Assembly (NCBI GenBank): GCA_034440635.1
Contig: JAOTON010001575.1
Location: 1,033,001-1,097,000 of the forward strand
Direction: 5' to 3'
Source: Lepas anatifera
Lineage: Eukaryota > Arthropoda > Thecostraca > Lepadidae
Length of the DNA stretch: 64,000 nucleotides
Made by a program: the position numbers and the translations under genes. This document shows, one piece after another, positions 1 to 52,302 of the stretch. Positions within the stretch are counted from its first letter, which is position 1, and each line of letters begins with the position of its first letter. The notes beneath the pieces are model-generated. The model was given only the letters and a program-made list of their open reading frames with translations, did no database searches and was not told the DNA's origin.

Positions 1-1555
1 GGTTCAAATACTACCAAATGACAGGGCTGGATATAGTCTCTCGATCAAAGGCGTGGGTCACGAATGGAGGCACAGATCACAAACCCAAACAAAGCATCTG
101 GGAGACACACAATCCAGAGGGATCCTAACCCCCCTCTCCTCCCACATACACCCCCCAGGATCTCCACCCATGCCTAATTGAATGGGGCGGCGAATTTGTT
201 GCTGCCTAAATTTTCCAAGAGCGTGGCTCCAACCTTAATCCAGCAATGAGTTATAGGAAGGCCAATGAATAAATGTACACATAACTGGAATCAACCAATC
301 GTTCCTTAAATAGAAAAAATTGCTCTCGACCAGCGGATAACTTTTCCACCAGTCCTTCAAAGGTTTATTGATACCATAGAAAGGTTGGTCTTCAGCGTCA
401 TCGGGTGTAGCATAGTTTTCATTTTTATTGTGAGCTTGTTTTTCAATTTCGAATCTTGGGTTAAGAACGATCAGTTCATGAAGTCAGGCAAGCATAACGT
501 TCGTTCCAAATATATTCTAAGTGCCATTAGTTACGACTTTTGCTGTTACGTTTGCACCATATTATATGATAGTTATTGATTATTATCATATTCATATATG
601 AATATCATATTTTGTCTACAATATATTTGTCATACTAAAATGTGATATAGCTTAATTAATTATAACAAATTACTTAATTAATAATTTATGAAATTATGTT
701 CGTATCTACATCACATCGTGAGGTCACCAGGTCCGAAAAATGTATTGCACCCGAATTTTGATTATCAAACTCGAAGTCCATTCCTAAGCTGGCTCTCAAC
801 CACTATGCGCCATGGAGAAATTCAGCGATATCGTGTCTCAAAAACTGGATGTTTTCCATTTTTGCCTATGGGTGGGGTTAAAATTATCCAATCATGTTAA
901 TTATACCATTCAGAATGTACGCCGAGTACCGTCCAGCTGGCAACGAAAGAAAAAAGTAAATATCACTCTTCCTAAGAAGTGGAGATATCGTTCATGTTAC
1001 CAAACTACTCGGGAGGCGGCAACCATAATCAAACCAAATCATTAGCGGTGTAGTATAACGTGTATAAAGTGTCTAACAGGTAGCCTTCCTGTCTTTGGGT
1101 CTAGTTTAAGACGCTTTAAAGGCCTCTGCTTTATCAGTCATCATCAGGGGCAGTTGCAAGAGCGGTGTTTTGGGGGCGGCCAACTCGAGAAAATCTTAAC
1201 AACATACCGTTTTTTCAAGAAAATCGGTGAAAATGTAATGATTTTGCGGGGGCTGTGGCCCATCGCCCCCCCTCACCTCTTTGCGTTCACCAGTGGTCAT
1301 CTCAATCACCATCACCTTGGTGTCTTAAATCACAAACGACGGTGATTATGTATAACGCTTTTGAACATATATACTATCCTGGGCATTTCAGCACCATAAG
1401 ATGTGAAGATGTGAAGATGTGAAGATGTGCAGATACCTATTACACAGTCTTTCCGCTGCTGTCCCCTTTACTGTCACTGCCGGCACTTCCTTGCGAGAGG
1501 TATCGTTGATGTGGTACCAGCAGGCCCTGGCTGGTTCCAGCGGAAAGCCGAGGAA
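1..1555. other. No gene recognised; AT-rich unique-looking DNA
   Basis: I see no exon with convincing coding character or splice borders here. Positions 580-690 are very AT-rich, with several TTAATTAA-like stretches. A short GATGTGAA tandem lies near 1400-1428. At 1145 the sequence CAGGGGCAGTTGC followed by G-rich DNA resembles a hAT-type terminus, but I could not find a partner end or a target duplication. Confidence 0.5.
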
Positions 1556-2009
1556 TTAAATGGAATGTGGCACCTTGGTCGAATCCTGAAATTTAGTGAA
1601 ATTAGGCGTACTTTAAACCAAAAATAATGAAACCACTCATGGTTTCTTTGAAAAATGTTCAATAAGCTCCATATTTTGTTTTTAAAAATACTCCTCTAGG
1701 AAAAGAAATAAATATCAGACTGTGGATGTCATGATCTGGTAACCTCCACCATACTCGAAATGCTTCAAGGGCTTCGATTGGCTGATGCTCATCGTGACGT
1801 CATCATATGTCGTCAAACCAGCAGCTCACAACAATGGCCGCCCGGCGAGGGGTTGATGAGGGGCGGGTGTCAGGAAGGTTTTAGTTTTTTTCTACGGAAA
1901 TATCGAGTTCCAAGACAAGTGATATATGGAGTACCGGGTTTTCCTACTTGCTTTACAACTTGGCTATCTCAGTTAAAATCATGCTATGAAGGTGCCACAT
2001 TCCCTTTAA
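1556..2009 (+). mobile_element. TIR element, GGAATGTGGCACC family, copy 1
   Basis: The termini are inverted: GGAATGTGGCACCTT at the left and AAGGTGCCACATTCC at the right, both bordered by TTAA. Near relatives occur at 18109-18567 (same orientation), 36632-37054 (reversed, right end lost) and 62073-62459 (reversed). The interior carries TGACGTCATCATATG near 1795, a full palindromic cAMP-response-type octamer. There is no coding region, so it is a non-autonomous DNA transposon. The TTAA border suggests a piggyBac-type mover, but the ends lack the usual CCC/GGG start, so the superfamily is uncertain. Confidence 0.7.
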
Positions 2010-2507
2010 ACAATAATCCTGTCTGCCAATGTGTACCTGGGACCTGATAGTATTGACATACTCCCATACAAATTCTAGGCTCATGGTCAAAGCTCACAAT
2101 AAAACAAAATTGATTCGTACTTATGATAAATGAAGATAATCTGGGTGTAAGGTGTGGCTGACATGCACTTGCTTTTAAGCCTATGGTAAGGTTGAATACT
2201 TATAAATAGGTGAGTAAAGAAGCAAAGCATAAAAATATGTGCGTTTTGTGCACTTGTCCTGTACGCATGCTTCCCCTCCTTGAATAGTACCTAGAGGGAG
2301 TAATATTGGCCACATAGCCTCTCTCCTTCATTTCCTTACAGACGGAGAAAGTGCAGTTGCCTACGCAATAGATCCAATAGACATTATCCCATTCAATAAT
2401 TCACAGGGGCGGCAACCTGAATTGGGCTTATCATGGAACTTCACTTACAAAAAACAAACAAACAAACAACTAAGGCGGCAGGGAAAGAGGGAAAGCCAGT
2501 TAGGAAG

Positions 2508-2690
2508 GGGGTGAGGTGGCGCGGGTGGAAAGCACTCGACGTCAACGCTGCTGACCCGGGTTAAAATCCCCGGGTGGGTATTCAGACTGTGTCATTCCGC
2601 TCCCCATAATACCCTCCCAACAGGATGGGAGTTTTTAGCACCATATGATCTCAACGGTCAGTGTATCGTAAAGCCCCAAAGCCGCAAAGG
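2508..2690 (+). repeat. tRNA-derived SINE copy, diverged
   Basis: A tRNA-like head is visible: an A-box-like GTGGCGCGGGTGG stretch and a B-box-like GGGTTAAAATCCC. It is followed by a body with CCTCCCAACAGGATGGGAG. The same body motif (CCAACAGGG then GAGTTGGCGACGCC) recurs in copies near 10436, 17837, 19783 and 58805. It is a decayed member of that SINE family, not a functional tRNA gene: the anticodon arm and acceptor pairing are not maintained. Confidence 0.6.
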
Positions 2691-4027
2691 CAATTATGAA
2701 TACCTAAAGCGAAAACAAAGGCAATGTCCACAAAGTTAACCCAAATCAGGCTAATTCACCTTCCTGTGAAATGCGAAGAGCCGAACAACGCTGAAAAGTA
2801 GCTTTTGGTCCGCTTATATCTCCAGTCTGCTGTGGATTGACTATAAGCCTCCGGCTATTTCAGACATGCGTCGCACGCGCCGATGCGACGTCACTGCCCT
2901 CTATCCTCCCTACCAGTGATATAGATGACGCTACTGTAGCGCTTCTGTGCGTCGGGCGAGTATGACGGTGGTGGTTTTCCGTAAGTCAGAGCACGTGGTG
3001 GCCAACACCATTTGAATCCAGTTTGGTCCACACCAAAAACCTCTGCGACTAGCCTAGGCCAGTTTTTGTGATCCATGAATATCAATAAAAATCTGAGCCG
3101 TGTCCAAAAACATATTGCCATACATTCATAGGTGGCGTAACTAGGGAGCGGGGCACCGTACCGCTTAAATCCTGAATAGTGACACCAGCTGTATGGGGTT
3201 CATTGAATTTTGAACTAAAAATTTATGGTGCCCCGTCTTAAAACGGGCTCTCCACTGTAGGGGGATGATAAGGATGGTGAAAAATTAATTTTTTAAATAT
3301 ACCCGTTGCCACTCAGGAGGTGATTCTAGGGCTAAAATGGAGACTTTGAGTGCAGAAGATATTTTTCTACCTTGCAAAAAACTTCGACCATGGGCAATTG
3401 AAAATTTCGTCTCTGATGCTTGTTTTCCGGCACCCACTGAGTGTTCCATTGGACCTGCTACTCTCAGTTTCTCTTGCAAATAATTCCAAAAGTGTTTGTA
3501 TTAAAGCAATGTCAGTCTGCGTATCCTGTTACTTGACAAATTTTGCAACATTTTTGACAAAAATGTCTAGCTAGGTCAGGTCAGGTCACTGGGTTATGAC
3601 GTCATTCCTATGCCCATGCATAGGGATTTTTAAGTAGAAATCTAACTAGCTCTTAAAAATGCAAGACAAAATTCTGATAACATTCAAAAGCTGTTGAATT
3701 TAAAAAATTTGAATGTCACAAACAGATGTCCGGTTAGGTTCATAGCTATGTCAGCAGAGGTCACCAAGGGTAAAAAATTATCTGATAGGATTAAATATTG
3801 CAATTAAACGCAGTATATCTATAATTTTGGTGTCATGGAGACCATTTGGCCTATATTAATCAGGGTTAGGCATGCTATTGCTTTGTTAGGGGTAATTCAT
3901 GCCTTTGACCTTACATCAAGATCACCCTGCTACCTGAACTCTCGGCCTTGTTCCTCTCCCCAGATGGTGACGGGTACCGGGACAGCCCTGGTGGAGTTGG
4001 AATGTTGTACATAAGAATGTTACTGCA
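2691..4027. other. Non-genic repeat-derived stretch
   Basis: No exon is supported. Positions 3285-3580 are a diverged reverse-oriented relative of 7115-7330; both share a segment reading TTTTCAATTG next to a TGGTCGAAG core. AGGTCA motifs occur as a short tandem (TAGGTCAGGTCAGGTCA) near 3573. A GTGGCGTAACTAGGG sequence near 3132 resembles a hAT end, but no partner was found. Confidence 0.4.
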
Positions 4028-5060
4028 TTAACCCTCGCCCCACCGGGGGCCATCGATGGCCCCCCTAAGGTTTTTCCGGGATAGCAGAAAAACGACGAGG
4101 CGCAGCACCGCGGTTGAGGGCTCTACCTCTCACTGCATCATTTTCCCATCATCCCTGAAATTTTTTACCCCGGGTCACCCAAGGTCAGGTCACCAGACGA
4201 GGTCAACCAAGGTCACCTCACTTCACTTTAGAGGTCTGTAAGAGCTACATTTCAAAGTCGATCGATTTGAAACTTCCTACACTTCATGACCCCTCCAGGG
4301 TCTACAAGGTGTATATCCGGGATTTTTTTATTTCGTGCCCTGAGGTCAGGTCACGAGGCGACCTCTCCCATTGGAAAAGCATGGGGAAAAGCTATTTCAT
4401 GATATAAAAGCCACAAAAATGATTGCAAATACTCAGACTGCTCAGAACAACGTTTTTGGACACCCTTTCACGGATCCCAGGGGTCATATTTGCCCTTTGA
4501 CTTTTCCAAGGTCATCCAAGGTCACCAGAGGTCAAAAACAGTATTTTGACAATAACTTTTGACCTAATTGAGCTAGAGCGGTGAAACAAACACAATCGTG
4601 TTTGTCTTGTCACTGGCTTTCATTTGATATACGGCAAGGTCACTTTTTGACCTTTCGTGACCTCAGGTCATATTAGGTCACGAGGTGACCTCTGGCGGTC
4701 AAACCACTGGCGGGAGGTCTTTACGTTCCACATAGCGGAAAAAGTACTGGCAATTTGCTATCAAATGTACTTTACCAGGTCTCAATAGCTCTACTGGCAT
4801 AAGAGTTATGCCCAGTTTGCTTAATCATTGCATATTTGAGTGAAAATAGCCGATCTTGACCTAATTTGACCTCTGGAGGTCAAACCATTGACCTGAGCAC
4901 TAAAACATGCGAAGTAATTTCTTACTGAATTCACGCGAGCTTTCTATTGCACTTTGCAGATTTGCGCTAACGCCCATATTTTCGGAGTTAGAGGGGGGGC
5001 CATCGATGGCCCCCCGGTGGGGCGAAGGTGGCGCCGGACCCCCGGTGGGGCGCGGGTTAA
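4028..5060 (+). mobile_element. TTAA-flanked piggyBac-like MITE with AGGTCA motifs
   Basis: The element is bounded by TTAA on both sides and has inverted CCC/GGG ends: TTAACCCTCGCCCCACCGGG at the left and CCCCGGTGGGGCGCGGGTTAA-type sequence at the right. A GGGGCCATCGATGGCCCC palindrome lies just inside each end. TTAA target sites with terminal CCC/GGG are characteristic of the piggyBac superfamily. The interior has many AGGTCA/TGACCT hexamers and no transposase. The same family occurs in reverse orientation at 19423-21891, and fragments of it start at 28726 and 35246. Confidence 0.8.
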
Positions 5061-21887: not shown

Positions 21888-23074
21888 TTAAACACCCCAT
21901 CTCGGTTTTTTTCCGGCGGCACGAAAAAACGGTGGGGCAGAGCGCCGCCGTACTTGGCATACCTTATCTTTGATCATTCTGCAACATTTCCCAAAATTTT
22001 TAGGGTTGATTCATCTCAGGTCAGGTCACCAGTAGAGGTCAAGTGACCTCACCTCCAAAAATTTTTAAGATGGCATAAGTAAGAAATGGGTGAATCTATC
22101 GGATTGGAACTTATACCACATAATGGCCCCACCGGTTGCTAAAACATATATTCCGGGATTTTTCTTATCGATTACCTAAGGCCAAGTACGGACCATGACC
22201 TCTCCATTGGAAATACATGGGAAAAACAGAAATTGGACTGCGTTTGTGTAAATACGTCTGAGAATACCTTCATATTCTCCAAATCTTAGTATTCTGGGCC
22301 CCTTTCCAGGTTCGTGTTGCAAATTTTTTACCTGTGCCCTCTGAGAAGTCATCTGGGGCCACATTCGCAGTTTTTAGACTTAGGTCAATAACATGGCATG
22401 AAATGATGATACAGCCTTTAGTTTGATATCATTGCGTTTGGATTGCTACAACAAGTCGATTGATGTGCAAATTGACTTTGCTAGGTTAAAAAGTGACCTT
22501 GACCTGACTTGAGGTCCGGTCATTCTTGTGTTTTGACCTAGTATGGTCATATTATACATTATTTGATTCGCCGTGACGAGAGGAAGCCAATGGTGCCTAA
22601 AAATAACTCTAACTCAACCAGGGCATATTTTAAGGAATTGGGACTGGTGGGCATTCGGCTGAAAAGGGCACGAATCCCCACCAAAAGGGCACTCCAGGAG
22701 CATCAAATGACTGGTGACTGGTGGGCACTGGGCCGTTCAGGGTCGTTCACTGGTGGACATAGCACGGGGGACTGGTGGGCAAAATGCCCACCACTTTGTA
22801 GCTTAAAATATGCACTGAACTCAACTCTGTCAGACGCTAGAGCCAAAGAACTCTACTCAAAATGTCACTTTCTTTGACATGTCATGACCTCAATATTGAC
22901 TTGAGCCAAAAAGAGACCACTATAGTTCCATCATGAATTTGTATGATCTATCTTCCAGCATTCGTGTTTTTTCGCTATCCCGCATAGGGGCCGAGTTCGA
23001 TGGGGGTGTTCAAACACCCCCCACCTGGGCAAAGGTGGCTCGGAGGCCCACCGTGGCGCAGGCTAAACTCTTAA
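21888..23074 (+). mobile_element. AGGTCA-rich TTAA element, degenerate right end
   Basis: It begins at the TTAA shared with the previous element (TTAAACACCCCATCTCGG). It contains the same inner segment as 51700-52000 and 42430-42680 (CATTGGAAATACATGGGAAAA near 22203), and it ends in GGTGTTCAAACACCCCCCACC and CCACCGTGGCGCAGG. The right TTAA is not exact. No coding sequence is seen. Confidence 0.55.
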
Positions 23075-28725: not shown

Positions 28726-29275
28726 TTAACCTTCGTCCCACCGGGGGGCGATCGATGGCCCTCTAAGGTTTTTTTCAGAATAACAGAATAACAGATCGAG
28801 CAAAACTATATGAATCCTCGCAGCAAGCCGAATCGAATGATACATAATATGACCTTGCTAGGTCAAATCAAGGATTTGACCTGACCTGAGGTCAGGTCAA
28901 GTTCAAATTGGGCAAAATGCATATCATTAGAACTGCAATGACAAGGCAAATATAATGCAGTTAAAATAAACGATCCATCCCCACCTGTTACTAACTTATT
29001 CAGTTGAGATAAGTTTTCCCATGTATTTCAATGGAGAGGTCATGGTCATACCTGACTTTAGGTCATCGATATATAAAAATGCCGGAACATATTTTAGAGA
29101 ACTTGCTGACCTCATTATGTGATAGGAGTTTCAATCGGATAAGTTCACGCTGTTCCGATTTATGCTATCTTAAACTTTTTGAGGTCAGATCACTTGACCT
29201 ATAGTGGTGACCTGACCAAAGATGACCCTAATCTTAAAATTTTCACAAAAGTTGTAAAAATGATAAGATAAGATA
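28726..29275 (+). mobile_element. TTAA/AGGTCA element fragment in the intron
   Basis: It begins TTAACCTTCGTCCCACCGGG with GGCGATCGATGGCC just inside, the left end of the 4028-5060 family. From 28810 it instead follows the 42240-42680 family (CCTTGCTAGGTCAAATCAAGG and onwards). It is a chimera of two subfamilies, and the right TTAA end is missing. AGGTCA motifs are dense. Confidence 0.6.
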
Positions 29276-41995: not shown

Positions 41996-42807
41996 TTAAC
42001 ACGCACATTGACGGGGGCGTGTACCCGCCCCCCCCCCAAGATCTCGAGAGCCACTCTAGATAGGGAAACGGTAAACGGCGTTGGGTATTTCATCCACTTC
42101 TCTACAGAAAATATTTTAACCATTTTTTCAGGGCACGTTTGGGGTCACTAGAGGCCAAAACATGCCATCATAGGGACAACATGTAAATTAAGGTTTTGAG
42201 TCATTATATCTGAAAAAGTAAAGATAGAGCAAAATAATTTAAGCTGTATAAATCCTCGCATCAAGCCGAATCAAATGATGTATAATATGACCTTGCTAGG
42301 TTAAATCAAAGTTTGACCTGACCTGAGGTCAGGTCAAGGTCAAATGAGGTGAAATGCATATAAGTAGAACTGAAATGACAAGGCGAGTCTAAAGCAGTTA
42401 AGATAAACGCTCTATCTTTATCCATTACTAAGTTATTCAGTTAAAAACATTTTTCCCATGTATTTCCAATGGAGAGGTCATGGCTTGTACCTGACCTTAG
42501 GTCATCTATATAAAACAGGACCACATTTCAGAGAACTCGGTGGGCTCATTATGAGATATGAGTTTCAATCGGATAATATCACCCTGTTCTGACTTATGCT
42601 ATCTTAAACTTTTTTTAGATTAGGTCACTTGACCCGTACTTGTGACCTGACCTGACATGACCTAACCTTAAGAGTTTGACACAAGTTCTAAAAATGATCA
42701 GAAAAACGTTATGCTAAGTACGGTGGCGCTACGCGCTACCGTTTTTAAGCTGTTTTTAAGAAACCCAAGGAGAGGTGGGTACTTGCCCCCGTCAATGCAC
42801 GTGTTAA
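41996..42807 (+). mobile_element. TTAA-flanked AGGTCA MITE, 0.8 kb
   Basis: Ends are TTAACACGCACATTGACGGG and CCCGTCAATGCACGTGTTAA, inverted and bordered by TTAA. The interior has a GACCTGACCTGAGGTCAGGT palindromic AGGTCA cluster at 42317-42336. Related ends occur at 31564 (left only) and on 52094-62896. It is the most compact complete member of this subfamily here. Confidence 0.85.
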
Positions 42808-44521: not shown

Positions 44522-45540
44522 TTAACACGCGCGTTCCACTGGGGGGCGAAATTCGTCCCCCTCCTGGTTTTCCCCAGATAACGCAAAAACGAAGAGACGC
44601 AGAACAACGAAACTTAAAGTACCTTATCCCTAATCAATTTTACACATCTGACCAAATGTTTGAGGTAAGGTCATGTCAGCTCAAGGAGCTGTTCAAGGTC
44701 AAGTGACCCGACCTCAAAACCTAAAATCACGAGTTTGAAGCGGTGCGCAGGGAACATCAGCGAACCGATCAATTTGAAACTTTCACAATATAATAAGGTC
44801 AGTAATGTCTACAAATCTGCTGTCTCAGAATTTCGATATTGTTGACTTAAGGTGGAGTCAATTTTTTGGTCACCCCATTATAAGTCTATGGTGAAAAATA
44901 TAATGGGCTCGTTTTCAGTAAACACTGGATAGATAAAGCTGGAAATCCTCAAAACGTCTATTCTTACCACGATTTTGACCATGAAATTGAGTTTTTGAGC
45001 ATCTGACCTCTCAAAGGTCATGACATGTCACCGGAGCATAGAGTGATTGTTTTGCCAATAACTTCTCACTGAATTGAGATAAAGCTGCCATTTTGCTTGC
45101 ATTGTGCTTATATTGTCACGGGGATTCGATTGATATGCAACATCACCATACCGGGTCACTCTGTGATCCTGACCTAGCTTAAGGTCAGGTCATTTCACTA
45201 TTTGACCTTGTAAGGTCATATTATACATGATTCTATTTCCCGCGATAAGAAGAATCCAATGATTCATAAAGATTTTCTCTAGCTCTACTGAGGGCAGATC
45301 TAAAGAAGGAACATACACTGCTCTGTTGTAAGCCTATGGAACCTTCTTTGACCTCTGCTGACCTCAATATTGACCTGAAATAACACTGCTTCGTATAAAA
45401 TCTTTTATCTTGTCAAGAGCTTTCGAACGCCGCCCGCAACTTTTCTTTAGCTTTCGTGGTAAACGAGATACGGAGGGGGGCGAAAAACGCCCCCGCCGCG
45501 GGGCGCGTCATGCCAGGGACCCCAGCGGGGCGCGTGTTAA
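44522..45540 (+). mobile_element. TTAA-flanked AGGTCA-rich MITE
   Basis: The left end is TTAACACGCGCGTTCCACTG and the right end, reversed, is TTAACACGCGCCCCGCTGGG. GGGGGCGAAATTCGTCCCCC on the left and GGGGGGCGAAAAACGCCCCC on the right are mirrored subterminal palindromes. The interior holds AGGTCA motifs and no coding region. The Penelope-like element begins directly at its right TTAA. Confidence 0.8.
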
Positions 45541-48489: not shown

Positions 48490-49401
48490 CTATTCTTCCT
48501 TTATGCCCATTGTGATACGGCCTGTTCTGTACCGGATGACACCGTCCCACACATTGTTCGTCGCCCCCTCTGTGGCCTTGCTAGAGGTAATAGAGCCATA
48601 CCTGACCTCACCCGCAGTGGTGGTTGGCAGACGGATCACAAGACCTGGAGTCTCGGCCCAGTTTGCATTTTCATCAATCCATGGCAGCACGTTATCTACT
48701 GGGAGAAAGTCGGTTCCATGTGTTTTCGTGGTGATGACAGATGGCGAGTAGGTCAGCAGGGAAGCCGTTCGGTTCACTCTCCAGAGGTGGTGCCAGTACT
48801 GTCCGCCTTCTCCACTAGCGAACAGGTAGAGAGTGAAGGTGGAGGATGTACCGTAGGTCAGCAGCTGGTCTCCCAGACTCAAGATGGAATAGTCGTTCGG
48901 TTCCGGTGTGTGCTCATTGCGGAGCAGGGTGGTGTTGAGAGTCCATGTTGGTGTAGAAGATACCAGCAGCGTGGTAAAGCCGCCATTATGAAACCATCTG
49001 CTGGTGCAGTGCACAGGCACTGGTAGCGACGGTAGGTACTTTACACCACCATCCTCCTCTGGAAACATCTGGAGCAACTGTAGACACGTCTTTGGGCACT
49101 TGATGTGACTCTTGATACCATACACACCGCCGGGCTCGTCGACGAAGAACGCTGAAGGTTCTTGCCAGCCACACACGTCAGCAGCGGTGAACAACTGGCA
49201 AGTACCATCGGACCTTGAGCTGAATGCCCCACATGGTTGCTGCCGTGAACAGGCAAAGGCACAGTGTAGAGCAGCCCTCACTGATGTTGCATACAGAGGG
49301 GTGCCAGACGTGATTATCTTTCCCTGTGTCATTGAGAATTTCTCTGACGAGGCACGGGAACTGGAAATCAGGAAGGAGAGCAGCACGACTTTCAAGGACA
49401 T
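48490..49401 (-). CDS. Secreted PAN/apple-type protein, single exon, 303 aa
   Basis: Uninterrupted frame from MSLKVVLLSF to IKEE. Residues 1-19 form a signal peptide (hydrophobic VVLLSFLIS core). Residues 21-106 look like a PAN/apple module: HCAFACSRQQPCGAFSSR with Cys47, 51, 57, then Cys68 (TCQLF) and Cys77. C-x-C-rich ALHCAFAC...CGAF...CQLF is the usual pattern of these ligand-binding folds. Cys102, 106 and 132 follow. Residues 135-300 are a Cys-free domain (RWFHNGGFTTLLVSSTPTWT, then WHHLWRVN and NVWDGVIRYRTG) that resembles fibrinogen-like or lectin-like secreted domains only loosely. Asn156 and Asn210 are in N-x-T sites. The likely role is extracellular recognition, adhesion or matrix. 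The absence of introns and the absence of a clear TE frame suggest either a single-exon gene or a retrocopy; the upstream region shows no obvious TATA box. Confidence 0.72.
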   Translation of the reverse strand: MSLKVVLLSFLISSSRASSEKFSMTQGKIITSGTPLYATSVRAALHCAFACSRQQPCGAFSSRSDGTCQLFTAADVCGWQEPSAFFVDEPGGVYGIKSHIKCPKTCLQLLQMFPEEDGGVKYLPSLPVPVHCTSRWFHNGGFTTLLVSSTPTWTLNTTLLRNEHTPEPNDYSILSLGDQLLTYGTSSTFTLYLFASGEGGQYWHHLWRVNRTASLLTYSPSVITTKTHGTDFLPVDNVLPWIDENANWAETPGLVIRLPTTTAGEVRYGSITSSKATEGATNNVWDGVIRYRTGRITMGIKEE

Positions 49402-49901
49402 GGCTAGGAATGAAATATCTCAAAAAGGTACGGTACTTTGAAATGGGAATGTGATATTCCCCAGCAGTATCTTGAGTCAGTTTTCCCCACCACCTCTGTA
49501 TTGCTCACGAGTTCCTCACACTAGTGTATGTGCAGAAAACTCTGACATGACCGGTGTACAGTGTTTCTACTGAGAAGCTCCAGAGGTTCAACCAATGCAC
49601 ACCTGTTGTGTTGTGTCCCCTGGGGAACGCTAAAGCAGCTATCCGGTAGCAAAAGAAGCATTCTTGTTACCTGTTTCCATAGAGTCTGAAACTTCTAGCT
49701 CTCTAATTGGCCAATAGGGCAACAGCCTTTGTTCAAACAAAACAGAATGGGTAACTAGAACAGGCGCGTTGCAGCAAGAATAGTGGATGCATAATTAAGT
49801 GTGTCAATACACAGTGCCGCAAGGGGCCGCGAAAACGGACATCATTGAACATCTCGTGAACTAAGTGACGGAGCCTCATGAAACAAAAACTGATGTGTAC
49901 T
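49402..49901. other. Upstream region of the secreted-protein gene
   Basis: 500 bp with no coding signal. It is bounded on the right by the TTAA start of the next element. Any promoter for the minus-strand gene must lie here; I see no strong core motif. Confidence 0.4.
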
Positions 49902-52097
49902 TTAACACTCATCACACCGTTTGACACCAAATTTGACACTTACCTCGCGCCCCGGTGGGCCTCCGACCCACCTTCACCCTGGCGGGGAGTGTTTGAACAT
50001 CCCCCTCCCATTCGAACTCGGTTCCTATGCGAGATAGCGAAAAAACGCGAAGGCTGGTGGATAGCTCATACAAATTCATGAAGAAACTATATCGGTCACT
50101 TTTTGGTTCAGGTCAATATTGAGGTCATGATAGGTCAATGAAGGTGGCATGTTAGGGTGGTTTTTTTGGGGTGTAGGGTCTGACAGAGTTGAGCTAGAAT
50201 GATTTTTTAGGCTCCATTCTCTTCCCCTCGGCACGGCAAATCGAATGATGTATAATATGACTATGCTAGGTCATAGCACAAAAATGATCTGACCTGAGGT
50301 CAGGTCAAGGTCACTTTCCAGCCTAACATAATCAATATGCATATCGATCGACTCGCAAAAGTAATCCAAACGTAATGACCGATGATGGCCGATTTTTTAT
50401 TTGCCTTCACGGACCACACTTTAAGCTAAGACGATAGCCGATGTGAGCTCAAAAAGTATAATCCACGCATGGAGTGTTGAGAGGCCAAACTGATAAGCCT
50501 CTTTGTTTGCCACCTTCTGACGAACTTGTTCTAAGTCATTCATCTAAGTCTTCTTAGCTCCACAGATGTGACATATTTGAGATGACGCTGTCCCAGTCAG
50601 TGCATTCGCAACTTTCCCATCTACCATTGCCAACTGCATAATGTAGGATACCAGAGCAGTGGTCCCAGCGAGGTCGACTGCACAGGGCTGGAACTTCTCT
50701 GTCTGGGTTGAAAAGCTGTTCATTTCTTGTCGGGAGACTGCGAGGGTTTTCTGGAAAAACAAATGTTCCTGAATGTTCTCCAAATGGTTTCCTGCGAGGG
50801 TTCACAAACAAATGAATATCAAAAACGCATGCACCAGACAATCCTGTACGGGGCAGTTAAGGTTATTTACTGAAATACGGAAGTCGGTTTTGGGGTATTC
50901 TGTCCGTTTTCGCAGCCGCTTATAACACCGTGCAATGGCGTAATTAAAGGCTCTTAAAATACGGAAAAACATGGATTCATTTACAGCCAGACACGTTCTT
51001 AATTGCCCCCCCTCTGAGTCCTGAAGTCCCATGTTCGGTACTGGTGAGAGTAGTGCAGAGTTTATGGGAGTTTGTGGAGGGGGAGGGTGTCAAGTGCCCC
51101 CTTGTCTCCTGGAGCTGGCTGTATGTCGAGGCTTTTAGCAGCGTAAAGACCCGGCTCCCTTGGACCTTTTTGTTTTCTCGGCGGCTGCTGGAGTTCCAAT
51201 TTGGTAGACGTTATCTATCGCACTGAATATTTCCCCTAGCCAAGTTCTGTTGCAATGCCTGGTTGGCAAGTTTGCGGGTTTTTCCACCCCTGGACATGTC
51301 AAAGAATATGAAATTTCGAGTAGAGTTTTTGGGTTCTAGCGTCTGACAAAGTTGAGTTAGAATAATTTTTAGGCACCATTCGATTCCTCTCCTCACTGCA
51401 AATCGAATGATGTATCATATGACAATACTAGTTCAAAACACAATGACCTGTCCTCAGGACAGGTGAAGGTCACTTTTAACCTGGCATAGTCAATGTGCAC
51501 ATCAATTGACTCGACTAGCAACCTTAACGCAATGACATAAAAATAAAAGCTGTATCATTATTTCACGCAAATATATTGACATAAGTCTGAAACTGCTTAT
51601 ATAGCCCCAAATGACCTCTCAGACGTCGCAGATCAAAAATAACAACATGCACCTGAAAAGAAGTCCATGATGCTACGATTTTGAAATTATGCAGGTATTC
51701 TCAGCTGTATCCACACAAATACGTACAGCCCAATTTCTGTTTTTGCCATGTATTTCCAATGGAGAGGTCATGTTCCGTACTTGACCTTAGGTCATCGATA
51801 TAAAAAATCCCGGATGCATCTTGTAGCACTCGATTTGCGCATTATGTGGTATAAGGTTCAATCCGATATATTCACCCATTTCTCACTTATGCGACCTTAA
51901 ACATTTTTTATGTGAGGTCACTTGACCTGCACTGGTGACCTGACCTGAGATGACCGAAACCTAAAATTTTGGGAAAGTTGCGGAATTGATCAGGGATGAG
52001 GTTTCCTAAGTACAGCGGCGCTTCGCGCCGCCGTTTTATCGTGCGGACGGGGGACCCGAGGGGGTGTTCAAACACCCCTCACCGGGTTGAGGGTTAA
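49902..52097 (+). mobile_element. TTAA element carrying a Transib/RAG1-like fragment
   Basis: TTAA borders are at 49902-49905 and 52094-52097. Subterminal GTGTTTGAACATCCCCCTCC on the left is mirrored by GGGGGTGTTCAAACACCCC on the right. AGGTCA-rich flanks (50100-50330 and 51380-51980) match 22000-22540, the arms of the related element 21888-about 23074. Between them, about 50400-51300, lies DNA not shared with that relative, including a transposase-derived segment. About 2.2 kb in total; no intact frame. Confidence 0.6.
50404..50783 (-). pseudogene. Transib/RAG1-like transposase fragment
   Basis: The minus strand reads HLFFQKTLAVSRQEMNSFST, then IMQLAMVDGKVANALTGTAS with SSQICHICGAK, then (after an in-frame TAG) MNDLEQVRQKV and FGLSTLHAWIILFE. 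The order (an S-R-x-x block, a VDGK-x-x-NALT-x-T-x-SSQ-x-C-x-x-CGA zinc-type motif, then FG-x-S-x-LHAWI) matches my knowledge of the catalytic-core middle of Transib transposases and their RAG1-like relatives, where C-x-x-C belongs to a zinc-binding region. About 125 residues of a protein normally several times longer remain. Catalytic acidic residues are not included, and one internal stop and flanking frameshifts make it dead. A domesticated or autonomous full copy presumably exists elsewhere in the genome. I identified this from motif memory, not from a search. Confidence 0.62.
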
Positions 52098-52302
52098 CAT
52101 GCGTATTGATGGGGCGGGCAACGGCCCCCTCGGGTTTTTTGGAGATAGCATAAAAACGGCAGCGCGTAACACCACCATACTTGACATACTTTTACTCTGA
52201 TCATTTTTACAACTTCTGTCAAAATTTAATGATGATGACATATATCAGGACAGTCGCAGTTCTTGAAAGAAGAGCAGGTACAGTCTCCCCAGATGGCGAA
52301 AC

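What the first reader, a model, noticed from the sequence alone, without database searches (positions are those of the whole stretch)
50404..50783. Transib/RAG1-like transposase relic inside a TTAA element
Seen: MVDGKVANALTGTASSQ with a CHICGA zinc-type motif, then FGLSTLHAWI after one stop codon, all on the minus strand. Known: this block order belongs to the core of Transib transposases, the lineage from which RAG1 of V(D)J recombination arose. Inference: this genome carries or carried RAG1-like/Transib elements, and a piece was captured by, or inserted into, a piggyBac-like MITE. A captured transposase fragment in an unrelated mobile element would be a route for domain shuffling.
Basis: partly seen in the sequence, partly recalled or inferred. 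Interest (0 to 1): 0.75.

Follow-up and report, generated by a model that had tools for sequence, protein, structure and literature searches.

The report
Internally deleted Transib transposon, not capture
The fragment is the middle of a transposase from the Transib family, relatives of the vertebrate antibody-gene recombinase RAG1, and it sits inside a shortened copy of its own transposon rather than in a foreign element, which is ordinary decay of mobile DNA.

Summary
The minus strand of 50404-50783 reads MVDGKVANALTGTASSQ, CHICGA, one TAG, then FGLSTLHAWI. Its only significant PDB match is the Helicoverpa zea Transib transposase (6pqn, E=1.6e-10).

It is Transib, but it was not captured by a piggyBac-like TTAA element. 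The surrounding element (49810-50932) is itself Transib: its two ends differ from those of a full-length copy by 3 and 2 of 32 bases. Its flanks are CAATA/CAATG; five of nine copies of this locus have an exact 5-bp CAATG duplication.

The same genome holds 3.87-kb copies with both ends; the two fetched are 99.66% identical. One product (749 aa) matches HzTransib at E=7.5e-103, against 0.0045 for the best RAG1 chain. The window copy is bases 1-130, 2047-2405 and 3279-3871 of that element, in order. Two deletions removed the first-aspartate and the glutamate motifs. A diverged related locus has no element at the site.

So this is a non-autonomous, internally deleted Transib derivative, probably inserted once and then duplicated with its neighbourhood. 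It is a new member of a known kind, of low interest.

The parts
49810..50932 (-). Non-autonomous Transib element, 1123 bp, internally deleted
   Evidence: Collinear with the 3871-bp element of L060. In 17 dispersed copies the end that corresponds to 49810 is found in 16 with at most 3 of 32 mismatches and in L012 with one inserted base
49810..49841 (-). 3' terminal inverted repeat (right end of the full-length element), begins CACAGTG on the + strand
   Evidence: 3 of 32 mismatches to the full-length right end; TIR pattern found 249 times in the genome, 0 in the reversed control
50901..50932 (-). 5' terminal inverted repeat (left end), reads CACGGTG inwards from 50932
   Evidence: 2 of 32 mismatches to the full-length left end
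49805..49809 (.). Target duplication, left flank: CAATA (CAATG in some paralogous copies)
   Evidence: exact CAATG/CAATG in 5 of 9 copies of this locus; the window itself 4 of 5 bases
50933..50937 (.). Target duplication, right flank: CAATG
50405..50755 (-). Transposase coding remnant, about residues 370-489 of 749; holds the second-aspartate motif MVDGK and CHICGA; one TAG at 50544-50546; protein alignment to the full-length product stops at residue 473
50756..50802 (-). 47 bp without match to the full-length element at the first deletion junction (in place of bases 131-2046); begins with AACCCTCGCAG, which recurs at 50748 inside the coding remnant
50803..50932 (-). 5' end segment, full-length bases 1-130 at 94.6%
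49810..50406 (-). 3' noncoding segment, full-length bases 3279-3871 at 91.3%; second deletion junction (2405/3279) at 50405-50406
   Evidence: the full-length stop codon is at 3186-3188
49940..50375 (.). Part of the 3' noncoding segment that also occurs apart from Transib as an interspersed repeat (about 80% identity)

Best explanation
Window 49810-50932 is a non-autonomous, catalytically dead Transib DNA transposon, made by two internal deletions of a 3.87-kb element whose full-length copies are still in this genome. Shown: both ends, their order and the coding remnant match the full-length element; five of nine copies of the locus have a 5-bp duplication; a diverged related locus has no element. 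Inferred: a full-length Transib transposase acted on the CACAGTG-type ends in trans and pasted the element into CAATG with a 5-bp stagger. One deletion (about 2406-3278, removing the glutamate motif) is shared with many dispersed copies and so probably came first. The second (131-2046, removing the first-aspartate motif and leaving 47 bp of filler) looks like error-prone repair, before or after insertion. The element then rode along as the locus was duplicated to nine places.
For: Transib identity. Full-length elements: L060 (3871 bp, TSD CACCG/CACCG, 749 aa) and L059, 99.66% identical over the element. Segment map 1-130, 2047-2405, 3279-3871; ends 3 and 2 of 32 mismatches. Exact 5-bp duplications in 12 of 17 dispersed copies whose two ends were examined. 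TIR pattern 132 forward and 117 reverse matches, 0 and 0 in the reversed control. Nine copies with the window-type structure on four contigs; in the 7 compared besides the window itself the flanks align at 94.2-99.7%, and the joined-flank search finds both flanks beside all nine. No element at the diverged paralogous site C1875. Deletion of 2387/2405 to 3279/3306 in 58 of 58 fetched non-full-length loci, 44 distinct places. D310 and D415 present in 122 of 123 aligned proteins, one gap; E625 in 105, 18 gaps.
Against: The window's own duplication is 4 of 5 bases, and four of nine copies of the locus are not exact. Five of the 17 dispersed copies have no exact duplication. L059's flanks (CACTG, ACTGG) are one base out of register. 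The C1875 site is only 72% identical over 17-244 of the joined query, with a 10-bp indel at the site and an 8-bp one before it, so it could be a never-filled site or a site left by excision. The window-type double deletion is seen at one ancestral site only (9 of the 40 scored of 133 candidates), so nothing shows that the doubly deleted form ever moved. Fetched copies were chosen by similarity to the window fragment, so the shared-deletion count is biased. No activity was tested.
Confidence: 0.95

Rival explanations
1. A Transib transposase fragment was captured by, or inserted into, a piggyBac-like TTAA MITE.
For: TTAA occurs on both sides at 49795 and 50944, and the fragment is short and broken.
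Against: Dispersed copies at unrelated sites start at the CACAGTG-type end, not at TTAA; both ends match the full-length Transib; none of the 12 exact duplications is TTAA and all are 5 bp; what surrounds the fragment is Transib 5' and 3' sequence. I made no dedicated search for piggyBac ends; Pfam-A listed no piggyBac model for the fragment or the full-length protein.
Confidence: 0.02
2. The fragment is an exon of a host gene: a domesticated Transib-derived protein.
For: 84% protein identity to the full-length transposase over residues 366-473; 7 of the 9 copies of the locus lack the stop.
Against: It lies between transposon ends and lacks two of the three catalytic motifs; 2 of 9 copies have the TAG, and the 7 others are open for only 126-132 aa. 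Transcription and selection were not tested.
Confidence: 0.02
3. The element belongs to a RAG-like (RAG1L-RAG2L) transposon rather than Transib.
For: The full-length protein has weak RAG1 similarity (best chain E=0.0045; Pfam RAG1 E=0.0045, 15.6 bits against a cut-off of 25).
Against: HzTransib matches at 7.5e-103; L059 and L060 each show one open frame of 250 aa or more, the transposase; the RAG2 Pfam model found nothing in the genome, although no control rang.
Confidence: 0.01

Closest known systems
Hztransib (Helicoverpa zea Transib; PDB 6pqn)
   Same: Protein alignment over query residues 193-665, covering the KWGFDG, MVDGK and SEEA regions; TIRs and 5-bp duplication (Hztransib is 3518 bp with a deduced 489-aa protein: PMC1852546, passages read).
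   Different: The element here is 3871 bp with 749 aa; the window copy is internally deleted and lacks two catalytic motifs.
RAG-like (RAG1L-RAG2L) transposons and RAG1
   Same: Distant homology of the transposase core; heptamer-like ends and 5-bp duplications, as described for RAGL elements in PMC7204232 (passages read).
   Different: No second open frame of 250 aa or more in the two full-length copies; RAG1 match only marginal.
Internally deleted derivatives of cut-and-paste transposons, such as Ds of Ac or deleted P elements (recalled, no call)
   Same: Ends kept, transposase interior lost, junctions with short homology or filler.
   Different: The family is Transib; the doubly deleted form is seen at one ancestral site only.

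Membership tests
Transib superfamily | Transposase homologous to a known Transib protein | tested here: met
   Fragment E=1.6e-10 and full-length relative E=7.5e-103 to 6pqn
Transib superfamily | 5-bp target duplication | tested here: met
   12 of 17 dispersed copies exact; L060 CACCG/CACCG; L059 one base out of register; window 4 of 5 bases, 5 of 9 copies of its locus exact
Transib superfamily | Inverted ends beginning with a CACWRTG-type heptamer (motif as given in the finding) | tested here: met
   CACAGTG at both ends of L060; window ends CACAGTG and CACGGTG, the latter one base off the motif
Transib superfamily | D, D, E catalytic motifs | tested here: met
   Met by the full-length relative (D310, D415, E625); the window copy keeps only the D415 motif. 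That E625 is the catalytic glutamate is recalled from RAG1
Transib superfamily | Transposition activity | not testable with these tools
   Needs an assay; the 99.66% identity of L059 and L060 suggests recent movement or duplication
piggyBac | TTAA target duplication directly abutting the ends | tested here: not met
   Window flanks are CAATA/CAATG; none of 12 exact duplications is TTAA
piggyBac | piggyBac transposase homology | tested here: not met
   Pfam-A lists no piggyBac model for the fragment or the full-length protein; the rest of the window was not scanned for one
RAG-like (RAGL) transposon | RAG2-like gene beside a RAG1-like gene | tested here: inconclusive
   One open frame of 250 aa or more in L059 and in L060; PF03089 gave no match in the genome, but no control rang

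The most novel reading that the evidence does not exclude
The Transib families of this genome may have ends built like a 12-spacer recombination signal: a heptamer, about 12 bp, then an A-rich nonamer-like block that the transposase reads through a GRP-type nonamer-binding region. Summed over one end of each of four families, the RSS nonamer (recalled) fits best at spacing 12 among 0-14 (21 of 36 letters; 3 of 100,000 shuffles reach this); GRP lies at residues 112-114. Against it: only the family of the window peaks at 12 by itself, the others fit as well or better at 11 or 13; the families are related; and the test was devised after seeing the ends. Spaced Transib ends with conserved elements, and a GRP-bearing nonamer-binding region, are already described (PMC9435367, passages read).
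Probability: 0.25. Interest if true: 0.35.

Novelty: new member of a known kind. Interest (0 to 1): 0.2.

Why it matters
It corrects a reading that would have implied domain shuffling between unrelated transposons: the fragment never left its own family. It also shows that this 1.04-Gb genome holds long-open-frame Transib copies with matching ends, from more than one family. Such copies are comparison material for the origin of RAG1 and its signal sequences, but Transib elements are already known widely (PMC9435367, passages).

Tried and rejected
piggyBac/TTAA capture: rejected on ends and duplications. RAG-like identity: Pfam RAG1 and RAG2 models searched in the genome, no match, no control rang, so weakly informative. 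Pfam on the fragment: only FeoC at E=0.1, below its cut-off, treated as chance. Protein search with the bare fragment: nothing. Weak Pfam hits of the full-length protein to DUF1280 and E217_gp28 are below cut-off; of the homologues scanned, P0044 alone passes the DUF1280 cut-off (28 bits against 25); not pursued. L079 (629-aa frame): no convincing ends in the fetched stretch. The repeat at 51298-52100 was first thought to be another Transib MITE; it matches only the 3' noncoding part of the element and its ends were not settled; the whole-genome search for it did not complete and was not repeated. Kapitonov and Jurka 2005 is not held. The host species was not identified. tRNA scan of the window with the bacterial setting: none. 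One search stopped on a script error and was redone.

Corrections made on checking: the ungapped comparison placed the right end of L012 wrongly; allowing one inserted base its end is intact, with flanks CCGGG and GGGTC, still no duplication. Probability of the novel case lowered from 0.30 in my draft to 0.25, because three of the four families do not peak at spacing 12 alone.

Full report
Observation. The minus strand of 50404-50783 translates as described, with MVDGKVANALTGTASSQ, CHICGA, one in-frame TAG and FGLSTLHAWI. Against the PDB sequences the fragment has one significant match, the Helicoverpa zea Transib transposase 6pqn (E=1.6e-10, query 45-113 to chain 198-266; next hit E=1.5). Pfam has nothing significant for it, and a search of the large protein set with the bare fragment gave none at E<=10 among 9 candidates.

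The genome. The window lies in G000, 1.044 Gb in 2126 contigs, species unnamed. The 380-base stretch has 40 matches among 40 scored of 133 candidates. The protein fragment has 150 matches at E<=1 among 150 scored of 245 candidates; the upper rows are mostly 77-100% identical and the lower rows mostly 39-52%. Of the 150 rows, five in the closer group have open frames of 753-782 aa (C116, C1434, C618, C565, C1597) and one in the distant group has 742 aa (C1666).

The full-length element. L060 (C1434) holds a 3871-bp element at 423-4293, with CACAGTGTTATAAGCGGCCGCGAAAACGGACA at the left and, inverted, CACAGTGTTGTAAGGGGCCGCGAAAACGGACA at the right, flanked by CACCG/CACCG. It encodes 749 aa from element base 939, with the stop at 3186-3188. 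L059 (C116) is 99.66% identical over the element; its flanks are CACTG and ACTGG, one base out of register. A 751-aa stretch of the L060 frame matches HzTransib over residues 193-665 at E=7.5e-103; the best RAG1 chain is 0.0045. Pfam RAG1 scores 15.6 bits, E=0.0045, below its cut-off of 25. A protein search gives 135 homologues at E<=0.001 among the 7995 candidates scored; 120 are listed, the best 76% identical over 100% of the query (P0001); where a source name gives an organism it is an insect or Hydra and the protein is called uncharacterized or unnamed. In an alignment of the L060 protein, those of L061 and L079 and the 120 listed homologues (123 rows), D310 and D415 are present in 122 with one gap, and E625 in 105 with 18 gaps. 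That E625 corresponds to the RAG1 catalytic glutamate is recalled.

The window element. Reverse-complemented, 49810-50932 maps to full-length bases 1-130 (94.6%), 2047-2405 (91.4%) and 3279-3871 (91.3%). Its ends differ from the full-length ends by 3 and 2 of 32 bases. Bases 131-177 of the window element match nothing in the full-length element at that place; they begin with AACCCTCGCAG, which recurs at base 185. The other junction has a short overlap, AG, by eye. The deletions remove KWGFDG (306-311) and SEEAQES (620-626); MVDGK (413-417) stays. The protein match ends at residue 473, short of the junction, so the frame is also shifted in the remnant. The 58 fetched loci L001-L058 are 44 distinct places by my count (several overlap; L002 is the window). 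In 58 of 58 the sequence jumps from 2387/2388/2405 to 3279/3289/3306; in L036 there is extra sequence at the jump. These loci were chosen by similarity to the window fragment, so the proportion in the genome is not measured.

Ends and duplications. Of 17 dispersed copies for which I fetched the second end (17 of the 20 loci; L016, L024 and L025 were left out), 12 have exact 5-bp duplications: CATTG, CGCCG, CGCTG, ATATG, CGCCG, CAGTG, CTATG, CGCAG, CACTG, CGCTG, CGATG, CACTA. The other five score 3/5 (L021), 2/5 (L012), 1/5 (L022), 1/5 (L011) and 0/5 (L010, whose left end was not found); L012 scores no better when an inserted base in its end is allowed for. Over 14 duplications (these 12, L060 and the locus's CAATG) the first base is C in 13 and the last is G in 13. 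The end pattern with up to 3 mismatches occurs 132 + 117 times in the genome against 0 + 0 for the reversed control. At the window locus the flanks are CAATA/CAATG; of its nine copies five are exact CAATG (L003, L005, L006, L008, L036, some read on the other strand), three are 4/5 (L001, L002, L004) and L007 is 3/5.

Probably one insertion, duplicated. The nine window-type copies lie on C1482 (3), C409 (3), C88 (2) and C90 (1). In the seven compared besides the window the flanks align too, for 2.05 to 3.29 kb at 94.2-99.7% within loci cut at 3.4 kb. A search with the two window flanks joined gives 28 places: both flanks beside each of the nine copies (18 rows), nine rows that match the left flank alone, and one, C1875:12123-12365, that runs through the joint in one alignment, 17-244 at 72%. 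Aligned, it has no element, only a 10-bp indel at the site and an 8-bp one before it. It may be a site never filled, or one left by excision.

Why not TTAA. TTAA occurs at 49795, 49902, 50421, 50857, 50944, 50954 and 50999. Those outside the element lie 11 or more bases from its ends; none abuts an end.

Other families. L061 has ends CACAGTGGGCCC..., CAGCG/CAGCG and a 742-aa frame; L080 has CACAGTGTTCTAAC... ends with GGATG/AGATG and a 432-aa frame; L081 has CACACTGGGG... ends with CTATG/CTATG and frames of 162, 409 and 217 aa; L079 has a 629-aa frame but no ends found. Placing the RSS nonamer (recalled) at spacings 0-14 and summing over one end of each of four families, spacing 12 scores best (21 of 36), and 3 of 100,000 shuffles reach that at spacing 12. 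Taken singly, only the window's family peaks at 12; L061 peaks at 13, L080 at 10-11, L081 at 12-13. The test was devised after seeing the sequences, and the families are related, so I treat it as suggestive only. PMC9435367 (passages) already shows spaced Transib ends with conserved elements and a GRP-bearing nonamer-binding region.

Verdict. A new member of a known kind: an internally deleted, non-autonomous Transib.

Noticed in passing
window 22430-23066, 51298-52100, 45163-45379, 28815-28905, 42253-42342: An interspersed repeat, 67-84% identical to the 3' noncoding part of the Transib element (full-length bases about 3306-3741): the Transib family carries a piece of another repeat, or the reverse. 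Ends not settled.
   Followed up: partly
window 48490-49419 (-): 309-aa open frame beside the element with no Pfam match at E<=0.01; the part from 49000 on lies in the stretch that is duplicated with the element on C1482, C409, C88 and C90 (loci cut there).
   Followed up: partly
L061, L080, L081, L079: More Transib families in the same genome: three with both ends found, one of them with a 742-aa frame, and a 629-aa frame without ends found.
   Followed up: partly
duplications of the dispersed copies (L009-L028 with L062-L078): Target sites look like C N N Y G: C first in 13 of 14, G last in 13 of 14, T or C fourth in 13 of 14.
   Followed up: partly
G000:C501:350964, 369142, 397006: Three matches to the fragment within about 46 kb of one contig with equal scores: local duplication or local hopping. 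Not fetched, so their structure is not known.
   Followed up: no
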